This document shows positions 18,910-31,825 of a DNA stretch of 64,000 nt, in pieces. The stretch is from NCBI GenBank assembly GCA_007644065.1, contig VJWN01000009.1, positions 806,001 to 870,000 on the forward strand. Reading direction: 5' to 3'. Each line of letters begins with the position of its first letter. The stretch's first letter is position 1. The translations under genes and the position numbers were made by a program. The DNA comes from Margaritispora aquatica (taxonomy: Eukaryota; Ascomycota; Leotiomycetes; Helotiales; Discinellaceae). A model generated the notes under the pieces. That model was not told the origin of the DNA. It ran no database searches and saw only the letters and a list, made by a program, of their open reading frames with translations.

Positions 18910-19192
18910 TCACTTCACTACCTCTGTACCTCAAGTTGAGAGCTATGCCTCTCCTCTCTCTAGTCCATCGAATACCTACATCAAACCTTGCAGTCTGAGA
19001 TAGACGTTCTCATCAATCCGACTGGATTCCGTGGTTACACTCGTTTGTGGTATCGCATTGACGACTCTTATGCTTTTGTCCTCCTGAGAGTCTCGGCTTA
19101 CGGTCTTTTGGTCGAAATCTGCAACTGGATAAGAACGGGATTGTCTATTCTATAATTTCTACATACACTCGTTTTCAACATCGACGGTCAAA

Positions 19193-20995
19193 ATGGTTGG
19201 AATATGGAAGAGTTGTGCCCTTCTCTGGCTGTGTGTTGCACCCGTCAGATGCGCCATCGGTACTGTAGATTGGACAAAGCCTGGTATGGTGAAGATTTCT
19301 TGGGGGATTGCAGATGGCTTGCTGACCAAATTGTTCTATAGACTCCGTCAAACGCGCCGCCAGTGAGGTCGCATATACCTTGCTGACCTTTTACAAAGGC
19401 AACGAAACGGGTCAAATTCCTGGGTTATTACCTCCTCCATACTACTGGTGGATGGCAGGTGGCATGATGGGCAGTCTCATTCAGTACTGGCACTATACAG
19501 GCGATACGACGTACAATCCTCTGGTTATGCAAGCCATGCAATTCCAGGTTGGGGCGCACAACGACTATATGCCTATCAACCAAACGGCATCTATGGGCAA
19601 TGATGATCAAGCGTTTTGGGCGCTGGCGGCAATGGCAGCGGCGGAGAACAAATTCCCTGATCCCCTTCCAACTCAACCTGGCTGGTTAGCACTCGCCCAG
19701 GCCGTATTCAACGAGCAAGCCGGACGATGGGATACACAGTACTGTAATGGAGGACTGCGGTGGCAGGTGCCGCTGACTAACTCTGGCTATGATTTGAAGA
19801 ACACTATTACCAATGGATGCTTCTTTAATCTTGCCGCTCGACTCGCAAGGTACACTGGAGATCAACACTATGCGGATTGGGCTGTGAAGGTGTGGGATTG
19901 GATGTACCGCATCGGACTGTTTGACGATCAATACAATGTATATGACAGCACAGAAGCCGATCTTCTCAATTGCACTACTATAGGCCATAACCAGTGGACA
20001 TACAATGCTGGCACCTTACTCATGGGCGCTTCTACTATGTATAACTTTGTAAGTTTATTCTACTTGCTTTGCTTGGCAGGACCTTAAGCCTCAAGTTGGC
20101 TTCAAACATGTGCTAATGAGTGCAGACGAATGGATCCGAGCTCTGGCGAAATCATACCCAAGGTTTACTGAACACTATTGAGTTTGATTTCTTCCCGGAG
20201 AATAAAGGTGTGATGAAAGATATCTGTGAAGAGTATGGCGCTTGCAATTACGATCAAGTTTCATTCAAGGCATATTTGGCTCGTTGGATGGCAGTTGGCA
20301 TTCAAATGGCACCATTCACCTACAACCAATCACACACTTTACTAGTGAAGTCCGCACAGGCAGCCGTGGCACAGTGTAATGGTGGACCCTCGGGGAAACT
20401 ATGTGGACAGAAATGGTACAATAACGGCGTTTGGGATGGTACCCAAGGTCCAGGACAACAAATGGCTGCGTTGGAGGTCATTCTTGGGACGCTAGTAAAT
20501 TTTGATAGCACAGATGCACCCACAGCACCTGTTACAAACACTACCGGTGGCACATCACCTAGTAATCCCTCAGCTGGTTACAACGCAAGCGCGCCTGGCA
20601 ACTCTATCATTTCACCAGCCACGAAATCAGGCAAGGCCGGCGCATGGTTTCTCACGGCCTTCGTAGCAGTTCTTGCTCTCTTCATGTGGGTTTTCATGTC
20701 AACGACCATGTTTGAGGATGGACGCTCCACAGTGGCAGGGGGAAAGAGGAAGAGAAGTAGGTTGACTATGGCGAGAGCTCTGGAGAAGAGCGAGTCGCCC
20801 GTCATTGATCTCAACAGCAAGGGCAAGGGCAAGGGCGTCGAGCAGCCGATTGCGAGCCCGAGGGCGACTCTATGGATGCAAAATGAGCATCGGAGGACAG
20901 ACAGTCTCCCTATCATGGCTCCTATCTCGGAGCACAGCAATAGCATGAGGAAGAGTGTGAAGCCGATTTACAGGGGAGGTGACGACCTAACATAA
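19193..20995 (+). CDS. GH76 mannan endo-1,6-alpha-mannosidase (DFG5/DCW1 family)
   Basis: Cell-surface glycoside hydrolase/transglycosidase of family GH76. In fungi these enzymes act on the mannose core of GPI glycans and help attach GPI proteins to the wall. Exons 19193-19283, 19342-20048 and 20126-20995 give 555 residues. A signal peptide (about 1-20) precedes the (alpha/alpha)6 domain, with [15 protein letters not shown], the catalytic Asp pair in [16 protein letters not shown] and a late [12 protein letters not shown] Thr/Ser/Gly-rich linker follows. There is then a membrane helix at about 437-458 and a basic tail of nearly 100 residues (GGKRKRSR and a GKGKGKG run). Yeast Dfg5 and Dcw1 end in a GPI signal instead, so the anchor here is a true transmembrane segment. 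Confidence 0.93.
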
Positions 20996-23352: not shown

Positions 23353-26300
23353 ATGAGGTTCTCTTTCAAGGTGGTGTTGGCAGCACTCTTTTTGCCTTCA
23401 CTCACTATTGCTGTCAGCTCTACCGATGAGTATCAGGACTGTGTGAGTGCAATCAGTGGAAATTTTTGGGGCAAAATTGACGTTCTAGGATGCTTCACAA
23501 TCTGGGTATCTTCCAAACCATAACATCGACCCAACCCAACTGGGTGCTTACAAACAAGCTTGGAAAAGCACATTTAATAATAATGAAGGCTTCACTGCAA
23601 AACCCCTCGTCTACACGCCAAGTGGATCTACAACCGAGATGGTCATTGTGGTATCAAATTCGAATATAATTCGAGTACTGAATAGCGCAACTGGAGCGCT
23701 TCTTTACACCCGAACTTTGGATCCTCCTTTCCTAGCGAGTGATTCGTTTTGTGGCGACATTGACAACAGTATTGGAATATCAGGTACTCCCATCATCGAT
23801 CCGGACACCGATATTATGTATTTCTTCTCGAAGGGTTACAAGAATGGCATTGCGGGCACGGCCTTTGCTAACACCATTGGTGGTATGTCGAACATGTATC
23901 AAGAAAGTGTAACACTACTTACTCCTCGCAGGTCAATATAAGTTCTATGGAGTTAAGCTTCCAACACTAAGTGATGTCGCTGGATTCCCTGTCAGTATGG
24001 AATATCGCTCAGCGGATAATGATCATGCACGTTATTTTGTTGGCGGTACACTTCTGCAACGTCCAGGATTGGCCATGGTCGGAAATGCGATCATCGGTGG
24101 GTTTGGTGGTCACTGCGACAACTTCAATTACACCGGTATGCTGGTGTCAATCACGAAGAGTGGTGTTGTCGGGGGCATTCAGGCCATGGTTGCGGCTCCA
24201 GGTAGGATAACATTCCGCTTGTGATTTATGTGAGCTAATGTGATAGGTGCTCCTTCGCCGCAGCAATTGGATATCATGCAAGCAGGCAATGGAAAGTCTG
24301 GAATCTGGCAAGGTGGTATGGGTCTGGCGGTGAATGGCAATAATGTCTACCTTACCACTGGGTAAGTCAATTTTATGTCCCAGTGAAACGAGAACTAACT
24401 GCATTAGAAACGGTAAAGGACCAGGAGTCAACAAAGTGCAAGGCAAATCGAACAGTGGAAAAATGTACTTGAGTACACTTGAACAGGTCGTCGCAAGCTT
24501 TGCTGTCAATCCAAATACTGGATTCCTTACCCAACAGGATTGGTTTGCGCCGTGGAATTATGACACTCAACTTAATGGTGCCGATCAAGATATGTCCGCT
24601 TCTGGAGTTGCTTTATTGGATAGAAATACATTCAATGCACCTGGAGTGGGGGTCAATGGCATTGCGGTTGCTTCTGGGAAGAATGGAATTGTAAGTTTCT
24701 CGGAACACTTCTATGACTGTACTGACGGTATGTACAGGTCTACGTTCTGGACGCAGACAACCTTGGTGGCTTCTATAATGGAAAGGGCTTTCCTGACGCA
24801 AGTGAGTTGTCTGATTCTCTTTGATGATCAAACTGACGATTTAGCCCTACAACAACTTTCATTTTCTAAATCGTTCTATGGGGGTGTCGCTAGTTATCCC
24901 CAGGAAGGTGGTTATCTATATTTATGCCCAACTGGAGGGCCTCTTTATGCTTATAAGTACGGATTGGATTGTAATGGGAACCCTCAATTTACGCTCGCCG
25001 GGAAGGGCGGTGTGGGTGCTGGTCTTGCTTGCAACAGCAATCCAACTGTGACCAGCTTTGGTGGTCAACCAGGGACCGCAGTTGTAGGTCCTCTCCATGT
25101 TTTGATCCAATCTATTAGCGCTGATGAGTCATAGGTTTGGCTGAACGATGTCAACGATGGGGTCCTTGCATATAGCGCTATTCCTGTTGATGGCGTTATG
25201 AAACAAATCACTCTCGGCGTCAACACCGGTCGACTGAACAAATTCCAGCGCACAACGTTTGGTAATGGCAAGGTTTTTGCACAACAGAATAATGCTCTTA
25301 TTGCAATTGCTCCGGTGGGAGGAGCATCGACACCTACTTATGTCCCACCAACACCGAGTTTGCAGACGCCTTCCAGTGCATCTGTATGTAGTTCGACTTC
25401 ACAGGCAGCAACTTCTTCACAAGCAGCCATCTCTTCTCCGGCTGTGATTGTCGGTGTCTCGTCTTCGTCAGTCCGCCCATCGTCATCAACAACTACTGTG
25501 AGCGTACCTAGCTCATCAACAACGATTATCAGCATACCTAGCTCATTAAGCCCAACTACAAGTTCGTCTTCGGCCGTTGTTCTCAGCTCAAGCGGTTCAA
25601 CAAGCATCACCCAACCTGCGTCGTCAACCATTCTTCCATCTTCTGTTGTCCAAACGACGTCGAGTACCATCACAGTCAGCGCACCAGTTTTGACCTACAC
25701 TCCTAATCCGAACGAGCAGCAGGTCGCCGGTACGTTCAATTACATTGGTTGCTTCTCAGACGGAAATATTAGAACACTTCCGGATGCCAAGTTCATCTAT
25801 GATCCTATGACTCTCGAGTCTTGTGCCACGAACTGCGCAAACTATAATTATTTTGGAGTGGAGTATGGAAGAGAGGTGAGTGATTTGTCGCCCAGTGAAC
25901 ATGATTTTAGCTAATATAACAGTGTTACTGTGGTTATAATCGTAAGTCTTGAGCCCTGCATTCAATCTCAGTCTAGGCTAACACACCTTAGTGGATTATA
26001 GTCTCCATGCTAATGAGCTTACCTGCAACAAGCCTTGCTCTGGAAATGCAACTCAACTCTGTGGCTCTGGTAAGCAGATCCACAAGCTTATATAGTGTAG
26101 AAATTGATGAATTCTCTAGGCAAACTCCTGAATGTCTTCCAGAACCAGATTTACAAGGCGCCACCCCCCAAGCCTGTCCACAAGGCGGGTGTTGCCTCTT
26201 ACGGCTGGATTGGTTGCTACACCGAGACAACAGGTGGCGGGCCTCGTGCTCTATCAGCCGCTGCCCTTGCGGCGGACACGATGACTGTCGATGCATGTGT

Positions 26301-28889
26301 CAGCTTCTGTGGTGCTTACGCATTCGCCGGAGTTGAGTATGGGCGAGAGTGTGAGTCTTTTCATGATATATATCAGTGCTGTACTGACTGACTCTGGAAG
26401 GTTATTGTGGAAATGTCATCAACCCCACCGCAATCCTGGCAACCACGACTGACTGTAACTTCTTGTGCGCTGGGGACAAGCTGGCATATTGTGGTGGTGG
26501 TGGAAGGTCAGTGTTATCATCTTCATTCTGAGAGCATTGCTGACATACATTTAGACTTGATATGTACCAACTTGGTGCTGCGGTCTCCTCATCATCCTCT
26601 GCAATTTCGAGTACGGCCACCCCATCAAGCACGGCACTTTTCAGCTCCAGTGATTCATCTACACTTGTCACATCGGTGCTTTCCTCATCCTATGATTCTT
26701 CCAGCACCAGCTCAATTCCACTTACTAGCTCAATTCCCGCATCAACGACTATCGCTTCATCTTCGACACAGACGTCATCGACCGCCAAGGGGACGGCTAC
26801 AAATGCCAAAGCGGTATTACGAACTTACAATTGGAACGTTGGCTGGGTTAATGCAGCTCCTGATGGATTCTCTCGTCCCATGATTGGTATCAATGGTGCT
26901 TGGCCTTGTCCCCCGATCAATGCAAATATTGGCGATACCATCAAGATCAATTTGGTCAATAACCTGGGCAATCAGAGTACTTCCCTTCATTTCCATGGAT
27001 TGTTTCAACAAAACACATCTTATGCGGATGGACCAGTGGGTGTGACTCAGTGTCCTATCCAGCCTGGTGCAAGTGAGTTGCTGTAATTCTGATCAACGAT
27101 TGTTGCTGACAGCTGTAGCTTTCGTGTACCAATTTGTCCTTACTCAGTCCGGCAGCTATTGGTATCATGCTCACATTGGTGGACAGTACATGGGTACCTA
27201 CTCCATCTCCTTTCATGGGTTTCGCTAACCAATTTAGATGGTCTTCGGGGTCCAATCACCATTCGCGATGCCCGTGATCTCAACAACTATGGCAACATCG
27301 ATGCCGAATACACTCTCACTCTCTCTGATTTCTACCACGTCGAAGCACCGCATCTTATAAACTATTTCCTCTCACCAAACAACTATGGTGGTTCTGAACC
27401 TGTTCCTGAATCTGCACTGATCAACGAAGCACAATCAGGTACAAGGTTTACCATTCTCCCTGGGAAAACATACTTATTCCACATCATAAATATGGGTGGT
27501 CTCGCTGCACAGTTCTTGCAGTTTGACCAGCACGATATGATTATCATTGAAGTTGATGGCACCTACACCGTGCCTACGACCGTGAGTCAGCTTTTTGTAG
27601 CTGTAGCGCAAAGGTATAGTGTTCTGGTTAAGGCGAAGTCAACTAAGACACAGAATTTTGCAATCGTGAGTGAGTTCATGACGGATATGTTTGACTCGAG
27701 TTATACCCCAGATGGGATGCAGCCTGTTGTAAGTTTGTTTCCACGTAGCCTGGGTCGACGGAAACTGACGGTGTCCAGGCGACTGCTTATTTGGTGTATG
27801 ATCCTGCTCTACCAATGCCCGCACCTTTTGATCTCCAGATCCAACCTTGGGATGATACCTCTCTGCAACCTTGGGACATGCAACCTATGTGGGATTCACC
27901 CAATATTAAATAGTAAGTGTGGCTATTACACGGTAAAGAAGCAATGCTAACCAAAGTAGTGTGTACCTAACTGCAACCTTCGCGTCTCAAAACAGCTGGG
28001 GCTCTAACCGAGCTTCATTCAATGGACGATCGTACATTGGACAGAAGGTATTTACCCTCACTCACTTCGCATGAAACACTCTGACATCACTAGGTCCCAA
28101 CCCTCTACTCCGTCCTCACAGCACCCGCGAATTATCTTACCACTCAACCCCAAATCTACGGAGCGATTAACCCACAGATAATACCCTACACTGCTGCGCC
28201 CGCGACCACGGTTGTCGAGCTCTCCATCAACAACCATGACAGCCGCGCGCATCCCTTCCATCTCCACGGCCACGCCTTCCAGGTCATCCAGCGCGCAGGG
28301 CAAGAGCCGCAGTGGCCCGGTCTATACGACACCCCAGTTGCGCCAATTAGGCGCGACACTTTGGTTGTGTATCCCGGTGTAGGCGCGACGATTCGCTTCA
28401 AGGCTGATAATCCAGGCGTGTGGCTTTTCCATTGCCATACCGAATGGCATGTCGAGGCCGGTATGACGGCTACGATTTTGGAGGGCCTGGAGGAGTTGGT
28501 GGCAAGGAAGCCATATATTCCTGCGTCCCATCGATCTGTGTGCGATGCTCAGGTATGTTTTTGTCTTTTTCCCAATCCAGCTCAATCATCTCACCCCGTC
28601 CCCTTACCTCTCTCCCAATCATGCTCCTCCCTCATTGCTCCCACATCACCATTTGATTACCAAAAAGTAGCAAATGAGTCAAATTCTAACATACCGCGCG
28701 CAGAAAATCCTCAGAAAGGGTAACGCAGGAGGAAACAGCAAGAATTGGCTCGATGTTTCCAACGCCAATTACGAGTCCGATCAGTCATACTACGGCGCCA
28801 TGGTCACGCCGCCAGCGTCGAATCCGTATCAAGGCCCGGTGATGAAGGCCAAGAGGCACTGGAATAACGGCACACCGTTTGTTGGTTGA
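23353..28889 (+). CDS. secreted beta-propeller / WSC / WSC / multicopper oxidase fusion
   Basis: One 19-exon gene for 1526 residues. Exons: 23353-23442, 23489-23882, 23932-24201, 24247-24361, 24408-24690, 24738-24801, 24845-25083, 25135-25875, 25923-25941, 25992-26069, 26120-26350, 26401-26506, 26555-27072, 27119-27193, 27238-27728, 27779-27912, 27960-28047, 28094-28552, 28704-28889. Domains: signal peptide (1-20); quinoprotein-like beta-propeller (about 31-549); Ser/Thr linker; WSC 1 (about 686-768) and WSC 2 (about 789-882), each with [11 protein letters not shown]; second Ser/Thr linker; three-cupredoxin oxidase (about 960-1465). Copper motifs are LHFHG (about 1022), YWYHAHIGG (about 1065), [10 protein letters not shown] (about 1365) and [14 protein letters not shown] (about 1423). 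The oxidase resembles Fet3 ferroxidases but has no C-terminal membrane helix. Exon 8 carries propeller end plus WSC start, and exon 13 carries WSC end plus oxidase start, so this is a true fusion. Likely an extracellular, wall-bound copper oxidase; substrate unknown. Confidence 0.9.
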
Positions 28890-30571
28890 GCTACCAAGTC
28901 TTTGTTGAGGTGTGCGGGTGTTTCTGTATGTTAATGGGAGTGATTTATATATTTTCTTGTTGGTTACCTTTGGATTTGTAGAATGAAGTTTGGGTTGGGG
29001 TGATGAGGAGTTTAGGCTTTTTGGTTCGAGCTTTCGTCGGTAGACGTATGAAGATAAGAATAAGTATAAGATGTATCATTGAGCTTTAAGACGACAAATA
29101 TTAAGATGTCTATTTATGCCTTTCTTTCATGTCTCGTGTTCTTCTGCGTGATCTAAACAGTCGTCAAGCGCCATTTTAGATTTCTTTTTTAGTTGTAATG
29201 TATACGAATAGCGGGCTGGCCCACTCACCAGATCTTGCTGGGTCGCTGGTTTGTATGAAGATTCCATCCCGTCTGTTATCGGTATAGCTAGACAATGAAG
29301 CTGAATATAAACGTATGTGATTTTCATAGTACTAGTTAGCCGTTTGCATGTATGTATATACGTATACATTATCAGGAAAGAAATTCCCGAACATCGCCAT
29401 TATTCCCACGAGATTCCCAAATTTCCCGTCATAGCATCAAAGATCAGAAATCAGAGATCAGAGATCAGAGAATCTACCTCGGACTCCCAGCCAGGCGAGT
29501 GTAGGATCTTCCTACTGTTGTGTTATATGACAGATGTGAGTGAGCGGGTAAGTGGGTGAGTGAGGGAGTGTTTAATAGGAGATGCGGGCTGAGCTGAACT
29601 GAGCCGAGGGTTAGGGTTCGTTTTAGGTTCATGGGTAGGATTATGGGTATCGGTATAAGGTTGGTGGGATGTAAGATGCTACATGAGTTGTGAATGGTTG
29701 GATGATTAGATGGATGGTGGGAGGGTAGGAGGGTAGGTATAGTATATAGAGTGTAGAGTGAAGAGTGAAGAGTGAAGAGTGAAGAGTGAAGAGTGAAGAG
29801 TGAAGAGTGAAGAGTGAAGAGTGTAGAGTGTAGAGTGTAGAGTGTAGAGTAGAATCTTTTGGGCTCGTGATCTTTTGCGTTGAGCTTTGGGGGGAGGTAG
29901 ATAGGTGGGTAGGTAGGTAGACTCTATTACAATGACTGCTCTCATCCACTGGCCCATCAAACACTCATACATCCACCCAACTAATCCATAAGGTAGCCGA
30001 GCTACGCCCTCCCTCCGCGTATTGATTCGGGAGGCTAAGCTAACTAGCTACCTTTCACTTTATACTCTCGTTCTTGAGATTGAGAAAGCGCTCAAACTCT
30101 CTTTTAGCTGGACGATACGAATGAGTGAATCTGAGATAGGATCTCGTCCTCTTTGTCGTTGTTGTTAGTATTGGTATCGCTGTCCTGAATTTTTGTCCGT
30201 CGCAAAAGAATGAACACCCGTCTCCGAAGCTCAGGTTTTTTTTCTTGTTCTACTAACCGATATGTTGATTCTGGATTTTTAATTTTGGATTCTACTGCGT
30301 GGTTTGGGGAGATATTCGAGTGTGGTCAAATGTAGGGAAAGGTGGTGAGATATAACATTTATTTTAAAAATATCGCGTAGTAATAATATTCGATTACTAA
30401 GATATGGCTATATTTATTAAAAGGTACTTTACTTTACTTTACTTCTTATTTAATGTTATCTTAAATTTAGTGATCAAAAAATAGCCAACCTACTATGTCA
30501 TATAATCTGTAGAATTCAAAATCAATATATGACTTCAATTTCAGCTCCCTCTATAGACTTCAACATACGCA
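28890..30571. other. intergenic region with minisatellite and AT-rich end
   Basis: Lies between the convergent ends of the fusion gene and the metalloprotease gene. No gene seen. The segment at about 30340-30540 is strongly AT-rich with an ACTTT tandem stretch near 30425-30445. Confidence 0.5.
29749..29851 (+). repeat. 7-bp minisatellite (GAGTGAA / GAGTGTA)
   Basis: About 14 copies of a 7-base unit. The centre is a homogeneous GAGTGAA block and both edges carry the GAGTGTA variant, so two unit types are arranged in blocks. Confidence 0.95.
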
Positions 30572-31825
30572 TTATACTTTCATTCCGACATCAAGCCAGG
30601 CTTTCCTCACAACCTCCTGTGCTTCACAACCAAAGCTTTTAAGCGCAACAACAATGGTCACAGAGGCCCAGTTCTCAAATGTACAACTTGGCGTCATTCT
30701 CCTATGGCGCAGAGCCTCAATCCAGATCTTGCCAGCCTTATCCCACGAGTGCCCCCCAAAGGCCATTGCAGCTAGGTAGAATGCTCTGTTTGGAATGCCG
30801 GAATTGATGTGCACTCCACCCAGATCCTCCTGCATCGATGACTTGGCCGTTATGGATGCAACCTGTGGGTCTTTACCAATCCCAATATCTTCCAACTTGT
30901 ATGCATTGCCCGGATCTTTCATAGATCTCAATGCAACTCCTTTCCATTCCGGGGCTATCAAATCCTCACCTATCAACCAATCTGCCTCTGTCACTGGTTG
31001 GTTCTTGTGCCATTGTTCACACATTGTCCCGATAACGTCTGCAATGTGCTCGTTCAAAGCTCCAGGATCATCGGTCGATGTCAGCGGCATGACAGTTTGC
31101 ACATATGCGTGCGCCATCTCGTGTGCAACGACTTCCAAGCTACGCGTAAAATTACCGAAGCATCCTCCAAAATCATGAGTGGACACTCCATTGTTCCAAG
31201 GGTCATTCTCCCAGCCGTCACCGAATACTATAACGTGTGCTAACTTTTTATTGTTGAGTCTCTGCCACCATGCACCAGGAAAGTAGAATGAGTAATGGAC
31301 GATGCCAATCAGCGGAGTGCCATTGCAGAAGACGGAGGTATCTTTCAGGGCTTCACGGAAGAAGTTGCATACAATCCCCATATTCTCGAAACACTCATTG
31401 ACCGTCTTGTCATTGCCTTCGTCAATATTTTTGTCATCTTCCGACCGCCACACCGCTCCAGGAAAAGCTTCGGCCTTGTGGCAATACTGCAGGTCAAAGA
31501 TGTGCCGATTTGCACTCTTGGTTGTAAGAGGCTTGGGTAATTCCAACACAGCTCGCTCCAGACTGCTTTCAATCTTTTAAGATTAGCGTTCGTATTTCCA
31601 CCACGTGGCACGCACGCAACTCACAATCAAATCATCAGCTTCTGTACGTGGTACATGAACGACTCTAATATATTGTTGGGTAGTTCCAGGTTCAGCATCT
31701 TCCTGTTGGGCTTGAAGATCCGCCTCTCGTTTGGCTTCAACTGCTTGGAGGAGGTGTGGTGGGATGAACAAGCAAGGTGACTCTAAAGTTGTTTGAACTT
31801 CACTTGTGTCGTTTATGTCTGCCAT
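30572..31825 (-). CDS. M4 family metalloprotease, protealysin-like
   Basis: Zinc endopeptidase of the thermolysin family. Exons 31625-31825 and 30572-31573 (51-nt intron) give 400 residues. Zinc ligands and active site are VVAHEMAHAY (HExxH, about residue 218), then NEHIADV with the third ligand (about 242), and GGVHINSGIPNRAFY with the transition-state His. These are the hallmark M4 motifs. There is no signal peptide. The N-terminus carries CLFIPPHLLQAV, matching the short PPL-type propeptide of bacterial protealysins rather than the long thermolysin propeptide. Length fits protealysins with a short extension. M4 enzymes are mainly bacterial, so ancient transfer followed by intron gain is plausible. 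It is divergent to the PPPDE-like gene. Confidence 0.92.

What the first reader, a model, noticed from the sequence alone, without database searches (positions are those of the whole stretch)
23353..28889. Single secreted protein joining beta-propeller, two WSC domains and a multicopper oxidase
Nineteen exons all splice in phase into 1526 residues. Two exons bridge the domain boundaries (propeller to WSC 1, and WSC 2 to oxidase), so the fusion does not depend on guessing introns. WSC modules are thought to bind glycans, and quinoprotein-like propellers may bind a redox cofactor or act as a scaffold. The combination suggests a wall-tethered redox machine for iron, phenolics or melanin chemistry. 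I do not recall a characterised protein with this order.
Basis: partly seen in the sequence, partly recalled or inferred. Interest (0 to 1): 0.88.

Follow-up and report, generated by a model that had tools for sequence, protein, structure and literature searches.

The report
Wall-tethered fungal copper oxidase fusion
A fungal gene really does encode one secreted protein that strings together a propeller domain, two WSC domains (a module linked to cell walls) and a copper oxidase; related fusions exist in other fungi, often listed as separate pieces in databases, and their chemistry is untested.

Summary
Nineteen exons (23353-28889, +) splice into 1526 residues: signal peptide, quinoprotein-type propeller, Ser/Thr linker, two WSC domains, second linker, three-domain multicopper oxidase (MCO). 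Exons 8 and 13 each cross a domain boundary in one open frame; relatives confirm the frame and the last intron. The order is not unique: a protein named from Acephala has propeller-WSC-WSC-MCO, three others have one WSC, five none, and a second copy in this genome reads propeller-linker-MCO in one frame. Trees of both modules place the fused forms in one supported set that also holds some unfused or partial entries. Several database entries named laccase, Fet3 or Abr1 lack a secretion signal and begin inside linker, WSC or propeller: apparently split models. The MCO keeps all copper ligands and the E185 and D409 equivalents of Fet3p, has no membrane anchor and no permease neighbour. Most likely it is a secreted, wall-held ferroxidase/laccase-type oxidase (inferred). 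The propeller keeps the Asn, Asp and Lys of the PQQ alcohol-dehydrogenase site but lacks the vicinal disulfide; cofactor binding is open. Eight literature searches aimed at the architecture showed no description in what I saw. New variant of a known kind.

The parts
23353..23442 (+). exon 1: start codon and signal peptide (residues 1-30)
   Evidence: N-terminal 9-mer hydropathy 2.73
23489..23882 (+). exon 2: propeller; codes C118
23932..24201 (+). exon 3: propeller; codes C223 of the conserved HCD loop
24247..24361 (+). exon 4: propeller; codes W272
24408..24690 (+). exon 5: propeller; codes N291, D349, D351, K381
24738..24801 (+). exon 6: propeller
24845..25083 (+). exon 7: propeller
25135..25875 (+). 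exon 8: bridges propeller end, Ser/Thr linker 1 and start of WSC1
25923..25941 (+). exon 9: 19-nt micro-exon inside WSC1 (CYCGYN)
25992..26069 (+). exon 10: WSC1
26120..26350 (+). exon 11: end of WSC1 and first part of WSC2
26401..26506 (+). exon 12: WSC2
26555..27072 (+). exon 13: bridges WSC2 end, Ser/Thr linker 2 and MCO start (first copper HxH)
27119..27193 (+). exon 14: MCO, WYHAH copper motif
27238..27728 (+). exon 15: MCO, E1128 and D1227 (Fet3p E185 and D283 equivalents)
27779..27912 (+). exon 16: MCO
27960..28047 (+). exon 17: MCO, R1300 (Fet3p Y354 position)
28094..28552 (+). exon 18: MCO, D1361 (Fet3p D409), HPFHLHGH and [12 protein letters not shown] copper motifs
28704..28889 (+). 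exon 19 (151-nt last intron, 1526 residues) with stop codon 28887-28889
25327..25707 (+). Ser/Thr/Pro-rich linker 1, about residues 550-676
26571..26804 (+). Ser/Thr/Pro-rich linker 2, about residues 883-960

Best explanation
The gene encodes one secreted protein. Shown by sequence: a signal peptide; a propeller of the quinoprotein alcohol dehydrogenase/BamB fold (modelled on a relative) with a conserved residue cluster that aligns in part with the metal and cofactor site of those enzymes; a Ser/Thr linker; two eight-cysteine WSC domains; a second linker; and an MCO with every copper ligand. Inferred: the WSC pair holds the protein to beta-glucan-type polymers of a cell wall or matrix; the linkers act as glycosylated spacers; the MCO, secreted like Mco1 and not coupled to Ftr1, passes electrons from Fe(II) (possibly also phenols or Mn) through the type 1 copper to O2 at that place, limiting Fenton chemistry or generating Fe(III)/radicals locally. 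The propeller probably binds a ligand or metal, on a flexible tether and not in a fixed contact with the MCO.
For: One frame through both domain boundaries and agreement with nine fused relatives. A second fused copy on contig C12 of the same genome runs from propeller end through linker to MCO in one frame. MCO best solved match Fet3p 1zpu, E 4.8e-109, against 6e-71 for the next, a laccase. All ten His and the Cys copper ligands are present here; E185 and D409 equivalents are kept in 34 of 34 rows of the clade set (one of the 34, P0195, later proved a stand-alone protein). A C-terminal hydrophobic segment occurs in 0 of 22 fused-clade proteins and in 69 of 97 stand-alone relatives. The only FTR1 matches found in the genome are on C2, about 4 kb from another MCO. 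A review says that P. [quoted passage not shown] SiWsc3, with three WSC domains, binds beta-1,3-glucan (PMC9024836, passages). AlphaFold of propeller-linker-MCO P0005 gives a disordered linker (pLDDT about 25) and pTM 0.52.
Against: D283 of Fet3p is present here but in only 11 of 34 clade rows, and Y354 is Arg, so iron may not be the main substrate of the clade. The type 1 axial residue is Met here (9 of 34; Leu in the other 25, and in 96 of 97 stand-alones), which by general knowledge lowers the potential. The Wsc1 paper reports no direct glycan binding for sensor WSC domains (PMC9024836), and five of nine fused relatives have no WSC found by BLAST, so wall binding is not essential to the fusion. 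No expression, protein or activity data.
Confidence: 0.6

Rival explanations
1. Two adjacent genes (a secreted propeller-WSC protein and a separate MCO) are joined only in the model.
For: Databases list propeller-only and MCO-only proteins for the same organism with equal longest-contig length in five fungi: Acephala P0113/P0179, Thozetella P0117/P0180, Stipitochalara P0115/P0183, Leptodontidium P0121/P0197, Podospora appendiculata P0142/P0184. One stand-alone MCO with its own signal peptide, P0195, falls inside the clade with weak support.
Against: Of the 15 MCO-only entries of the clade whose N-termini I printed, four begin in the linker, three in the propeller (P0184, P0185, P0187), one in WSC (P0197), three probably at a WSC end (P0181, P0200, P0201), three are partial at the MCO start and one (P0191) is unclear; none looks like a signal peptide, though P0200 just passes the hydropathy test. 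By that crude test 2 of 23 entries pass (P0195, P0200; 6 of the 23 do not even begin with Met), against 87 of 97 stand-alones. Exons 8 and 13 cross the boundaries here and the C12 copy is open across the join.
Confidence: 0.05
2. The propeller is a working cofactor-dependent dehydrogenase (PQQ or another quinone/metal) whose reduced product is re-oxidised by the MCO: a two-step extracellular redox relay in one chain.
Against: The second Cys of the vicinal pair is lost (G119; column G 33, T 24, V 24, N 9 of 105); the metal-ligand Glu has no clear counterpart; Trp and Asp alignments differ between templates or programs; the sequence matches behind them are weak (1kv9 stretch i-Evalue 0.33); no rigid contact of the domains is predicted; the propeller also occurs without any MCO.
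Confidence: 0.2
3. The propeller is a non-catalytic binding or spacing module, like BamB-type or empty quinoproteins, that aims the MCO at a target.
For: Propellers not known to me as enzymes (BamB, YxaL, designed Tako8 and Cake8) score as high as or higher than the dehydrogenases in VIA-align; vicinal disulfide missing; the same propeller heads WSC arrays with no oxidase found.
Against: Near-invariance of the polar residues at the site is more than a scaffold seems to need.
Confidence: 0.4
4. A pigment (melanin) oxidase of the Abr1 type.
For: Two clade members are named conidial pigment oxidase Abr1 (P0184, P0187).
Against: Those names sit on models that begin in the propeller. The review says Abr1 has only the E185 equivalent, whereas this clade keeps D409 too. 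Of ten other window ORFs scanned (of 45 listed) seven had Pfam matches and I recognise none as a pigment synthase; three had no match.
Confidence: 0.1

Closest known systems
Fet3p of yeast (1zpu) and the Fet3 iron-uptake ferroxidases
   Same: Closest solved structure by sequence; copper ligands; E185, D283 and D409 equivalents in this protein
   Different: No C-terminal membrane anchor by hydropathy, no FTR1 neighbour found, Y354 to Arg, axial Leu to Met, fused to propeller and WSC
Secreted Mco1 ferroxidase of Phanerochaete chrysosporium (PMC3129051, passages)
   Same: Secreted; E185 and D409 equivalents, the pair kept throughout this clade
   Different: Not described as a fusion in the passages seen; the window protein has the D283 equivalent as well; sequences not compared here
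Hybrid B heme peroxidases and WSC glyoxal oxidases (PMC5571214, PMC3620520, passages)
   Same: Secreted fungal redox enzyme joined to WSC repeats; such domain combinations appear among the search hits
   Different: Other catalytic fold, no propeller of this family, no MCO
CBM20 laccase ZtrLac1A (PMC6700816, passages)
   Same: MCO with an appended carbohydrate-binding module
   Different: AA1_3 laccase, starch-binding module, no propeller or WSC mentioned
Eight-bladed PQQ alcohol dehydrogenases (1kv9, 8gy2)
   Same: Fold; aligned Asn, Asp, Lys and first Cys
   Different: Second Cys lost, Glu ligand unclear, far in sequence (no Pfam match)
Fungal PQQ enzymes of AA12, such as CcPDH (PMC6881789, passages)
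   Same: Secreted fungal modular propeller redox protein
   Different: Six-bladed; the paper says six- and eight-bladed types share no sequence homology
Tc323 of Trypanosoma cruzi (PMC13384848, passages)
   Same: Eukaryotic propellers related to PQQ alcohol dehydrogenases; the paper mentions uncharacterised fungal and plant relatives
   Different: Six propellers predicted nine-bladed, no WSC or MCO mentioned in the passages; sequences not compared here

Membership tests
Multicopper oxidase (three cupredoxin domains) | All three Pfam MCO domains and the copper-ligand His/Cys | tested here: met
Fet3 iron-uptake ferroxidase | E185, D283 and D409 equivalents | tested here: met
   All three in the window protein; D283 in only 11 of 34 clade rows
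Fet3 iron-uptake ferroxidase | C-terminal transmembrane anchor | tested here: not met
   hydropathy scan only
Fet3 iron-uptake ferroxidase | FTR1 permease gene beside it | tested here: not met
   Only FTR1 matches found are on C2 at 686538-687238; window is on C49
Sensu stricto laccase | Laccase signature motifs and phenol oxidation | not tested
   Motifs not scored; activity needs the bench
WSC domain | Pfam PF01822 over cut-off and eight cysteines | tested here: met
   two stretches, 131.9 bits in all; 8 and 8 Cys
WSC domain | Binding of glycans | not testable with these tools
   needs protein
Eight-bladed PQQ alcohol dehydrogenase | Eight-bladed quinoprotein fold | tested here: met
   model of the relative P0115, not of the window protein itself; blades judged by the matched structures, not counted
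Eight-bladed PQQ alcohol dehydrogenase | Vicinal Cys-Cys disulfide above PQQ | tested here: not met
   C118 kept, G119 in place of the second Cys
Eight-bladed PQQ alcohol dehydrogenase | Metal-ligand Asn, catalytic Asp, Lys | tested here: met
   N291, D351, K381 aligned with 1kv9 and with the 75-row profile; the 8gy2 alignment shifts the Asp; roles in 1kv9 recalled
Eight-bladed PQQ alcohol dehydrogenase | Metal-ligand Glu and stacking Trp | tested here: inconclusive
   Glu falls on C223 or N225; W272 matches the Trp of 1kv9 in HMMER but another Trp in hhalign
AA12 fungal PQQ enzyme | Six-bladed propeller | tested here: inconclusive
   No AA12 title among the rows shown, but absence from the list excludes nothing

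The most novel reading that the evidence does not exclude
The propeller is a eukaryotic eight-bladed quinoprotein with a remodelled cofactor or metal site (C118, C223, W272, N291, D349/D351, K381), and the fusion is a self-contained, wall-held redox relay in which the propeller oxidises an alcohol, sugar or lignin-derived donor and the MCO re-oxidises its carrier with O2. A 2026 paper calls the six-bladed CcPDH the only other eukaryotic PQQ enzyme with demonstrated activity besides its own nine-bladed Tc323 (PMC13384848, passages; the title of PMC6881810, seen in a listing, adds a Trichoderma AA12 enzyme), so an eight-bladed one would be new as far as I saw.
Probability: 0.13. Interest if true: 0.85.

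Novelty: new variant of a known kind. Interest (0 to 1): 0.5.

Why it matters
The fusion defines a recurrent fungal protein type hidden by split gene models and by a propeller for which Pfam gave no match in this protein, P0115 or P0127, and NCBIfam none in P0115. It offers a test of whether fungi hold Fe(II)/phenol oxidation at the wall through WSC modules, and of whether eukaryotes use eight-bladed quinoprotein-like domains. Re-annotation would also correct entries named Fet3, Abr1 or laccase that appear to be truncated pieces.

Tried and rejected
An automatic splice search over-called introns (55 exons) and was dropped for a hand model. The 1537-residue form with the 118-nt last intron was dropped after alignment. 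A PDB sequence search with the propeller alone gave only a chance antibody match. The profile A1 was dominated by HYDIN-type Ig domains carried by long rows, so a mostly propeller-only profile A3 was used. Grouping errors mended: P0195 was counted as fused and found stand-alone; P0200 and P0201 were first counted as stand-alone and found to begin in a linker. For the propeller tree and the 106-row conservation count I kept only rows aligned over at least 400 residues, so P0117 and P0142 were dropped. Pfam did not find Ig domains in P0002, where I infer them. No AA12 title is among the rows shown. Literature: ten searches, of which eight bore on the architecture and two on residue roles; none of what I saw describes it. 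Of the eight papers with 'WSC domain' and 'multicopper oxidase' I looked into passages of two, PMC3620520 and PMC3463431. Subscription papers and preprints are not in that library. Thirteen papers were seen as passages found by terms, none as whole text; the others only as search listings with the start of the abstract.
Full report
Observation. The window is a stretch of a 42.4-Mb genome in 49 contigs held as G000 (C49:806001-870000). From its introns and relatives I take it for an ascomycete fungus; the nearest relatives are mostly Helotiales and Sordariomycetes by their names (orders recalled); the species is not known to me. The hand-built model has 19 exons and 18 GT-AG introns, 43-51 nt except the last. 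Exon 8 and exon 13 cross the domain boundaries in one frame; the chance of such open stretches at window composition is about 2e-6 and 1e-4.

Relatives. Of 112 proteins found with the whole protein, nine carry propeller plus MCO: P0002 with two WSC domains in the same order, P0007, P0008 and P0009 with one, P0001 and P0003-P0006 with none by BLAST (part of that output was cut, and rows P0044-P0057 were judged by the Pfam column). P0002 and P0007-P0009 have 313-348 residues between propeller and first WSC, against about 130 here. I take the extra part for Ig-like domains because related propeller proteins have weak Ig matches (P0011 below, P0107 above the cut-off); Pfam found none in P0002 itself. 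Many other hits are propeller plus WSC arrays, or WSC with peroxidase or glyoxal oxidase domains. In the own genome the propeller search finds seven other loci: C12 with an MCO and no WSC found; five with WSC hits downstream (two on C34, one each on C5, C48 and C10); and C1 with Ig-like matches below the cut-offs and one weak WSC hit. The C12 copy reads from propeller end through linker into MCO in one frame.

Split entries. I printed the N-termini of 15 MCO-only entries of the clade: four begin in the linker, three in the propeller, one in WSC, three probably at a WSC end (inferred from likeness to DMYQLGA here), three are partial at the MCO start and one is unclear. In a crude hydropathy test 2 of 23 such entries pass (P0195, truly stand-alone, and P0200, barely); 17 of the 23 begin with Met. 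Of stand-alone MCOs 87 of 97 pass, of full fused proteins 8 of 9, of seven propeller-only entries five. The 23 and the 97 are the best 120 listed of 4719 proteins found. Five organisms have a propeller-only and an MCO-only entry with the same longest-contig length; I infer, but did not see, that they are neighbours. In other fungi in both lists, for example Diplogelasinospora, Lasiosphaeria, Bombardia and Mollisia, the contig lengths differ, so those may be other copies.

Trees. In the MCO tree of 73 rows the 26 fused or split rows lie in one 28-row set (SH-aLRT 99) with P0200 and P0201, then labelled alone but beginning in a linker. In a careful tree of 40 rows 25 fused or split rows form a 26-row set (100/98) that also holds the stand-alone P0195, itself weakly placed (81/61); the fused label is therefore one side of a branch in 0 percent of 200 bootstrap trees. 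The label MCO there needs 7 changes, at least 5 by starred branches. Several of those rows are unfused or partial models, so one origin with later losses is my simplest reading but is not proved. I infer that an MCO was added to a propeller-WSC ancestor and that Ig-like and WSC parts were later lost in branches.

Oxidase site. Fet3p is the best solved match (E 4.8e-109). Counting by hand on that alignment, with chain index plus 21 as precursor numbering (recalled, and consistent with the acidic residues named in PMC3129051 and PMC11817551), Fet3p E185, D283 and D409 meet E1128, D1227 and D1361 here and Y354 meets R1300. In 34 clade rows E is 34/34, D409 34/34, D283 11/34 and Arg at Y354 33/34 (one gap); in 97 stand-alones E is 94, D283 92, D409 97, Tyr 74 and Arg 23. 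The T1 axial residue is Met here. A review states that E185, D283 and D409 are decisive, that E185 and D409 contact iron, and that secreted Mco1 has those two (PMC3129051; also PMC11817551). A C-terminal hydrophobic segment is present in 0 of 22 fused-clade proteins and in 69 of 97 stand-alones. The only FTR1 matches found lie on C2, about 4 kb from an MCO hit at C2:681914-682201, so iron uptake is probably served there.

Propeller site. Aligning the family with 1kv9 (weak, stretch i-Evalue 0.33) and with 75 PQQ dehydrogenases (hhalign: local default E 3.2e-6, probability 88, 284 columns, alignment read; a second setting gave E 9.6e-9, probability 95, 437 columns, alignment not read) puts C118 on the first Cys of the vicinal pair, G119 on the second, N291 on the TGN Asn, D351 on the WD Asp and K381 on the KNG Lys. 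The roles of these residues in 1kv9 are recalled; a paper on XoxF1 confirms the disulfide above PQQ and metal-bound Glu and Asp in methanol dehydrogenases (PMC8546591, passages). In 106 propellers C118, C223, W272, N291, D349, D351 and K381 are kept in 98-100 percent of the rows with a residue there. The second Cys is absent, the Glu unclear, and the Trp and Asp positions shift between templates or programs. PQQ binding is therefore neither shown nor excluded.

Arrangement. AlphaFold of P0005 (propeller-linker-MCO, 1155 residues; its own linker looks mis-annotated) has mean pLDDT 74.6, a disordered linker and pTM 0.52, which suggests tethered beads. The window protein itself was not folded.

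Verdict. The fusion is real and well supported by sequence; the architecture is shared, modular and, as far as I could search, undescribed. The most likely role is an extracellular, WSC-held ferroxidase/laccase-type oxidase with a ligand-binding propeller; the ferroxidase and wall steps are inferred.

Noticed in passing
window about 19190-20995, +: A GH76 (DFG5/DCW1-type, name recalled) gene lies just upstream on the same strand; a possible wall-related neighbour.
   Followed up: partly
window 30572-31576, -: Thermolysin-type M4 metallopeptidase gene downstream.
   Followed up: no
G000 C2:681914-687238: An MCO match and two FTR1 matches lie about 4 kb apart, probably the genome's Fet3-Ftr1 pair.
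   Followed up: partly
G000, many contigs: 123 WSC matches in the genome, counted exon by exon, so fewer whole domains; many lie in arrays.
   Followed up: no
P0107, P0099 and relatives: Bacterial-looking proteins join a related propeller to Ig-like domains, a start like that of the fungal propeller-WSC proteins; an old transfer is possible.
   Followed up: partly
P0184, P0187, P0188, P0200 and others: Entries named Abr1, FET3 or ferroxidase begin inside propeller, linker or probably a WSC end and look like truncated fusion proteins.
   Followed up: yes
L022 (G000 C1:2162500-2170500): Propeller paralogue with a weak Ig-like match and Ser/Thr linker whose C-terminal part is unclear.
   Followed up: partly
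window 29748-29850: Heptamer tandem repeat AGAGTGA, 14.7 copies.
   Followed up: no
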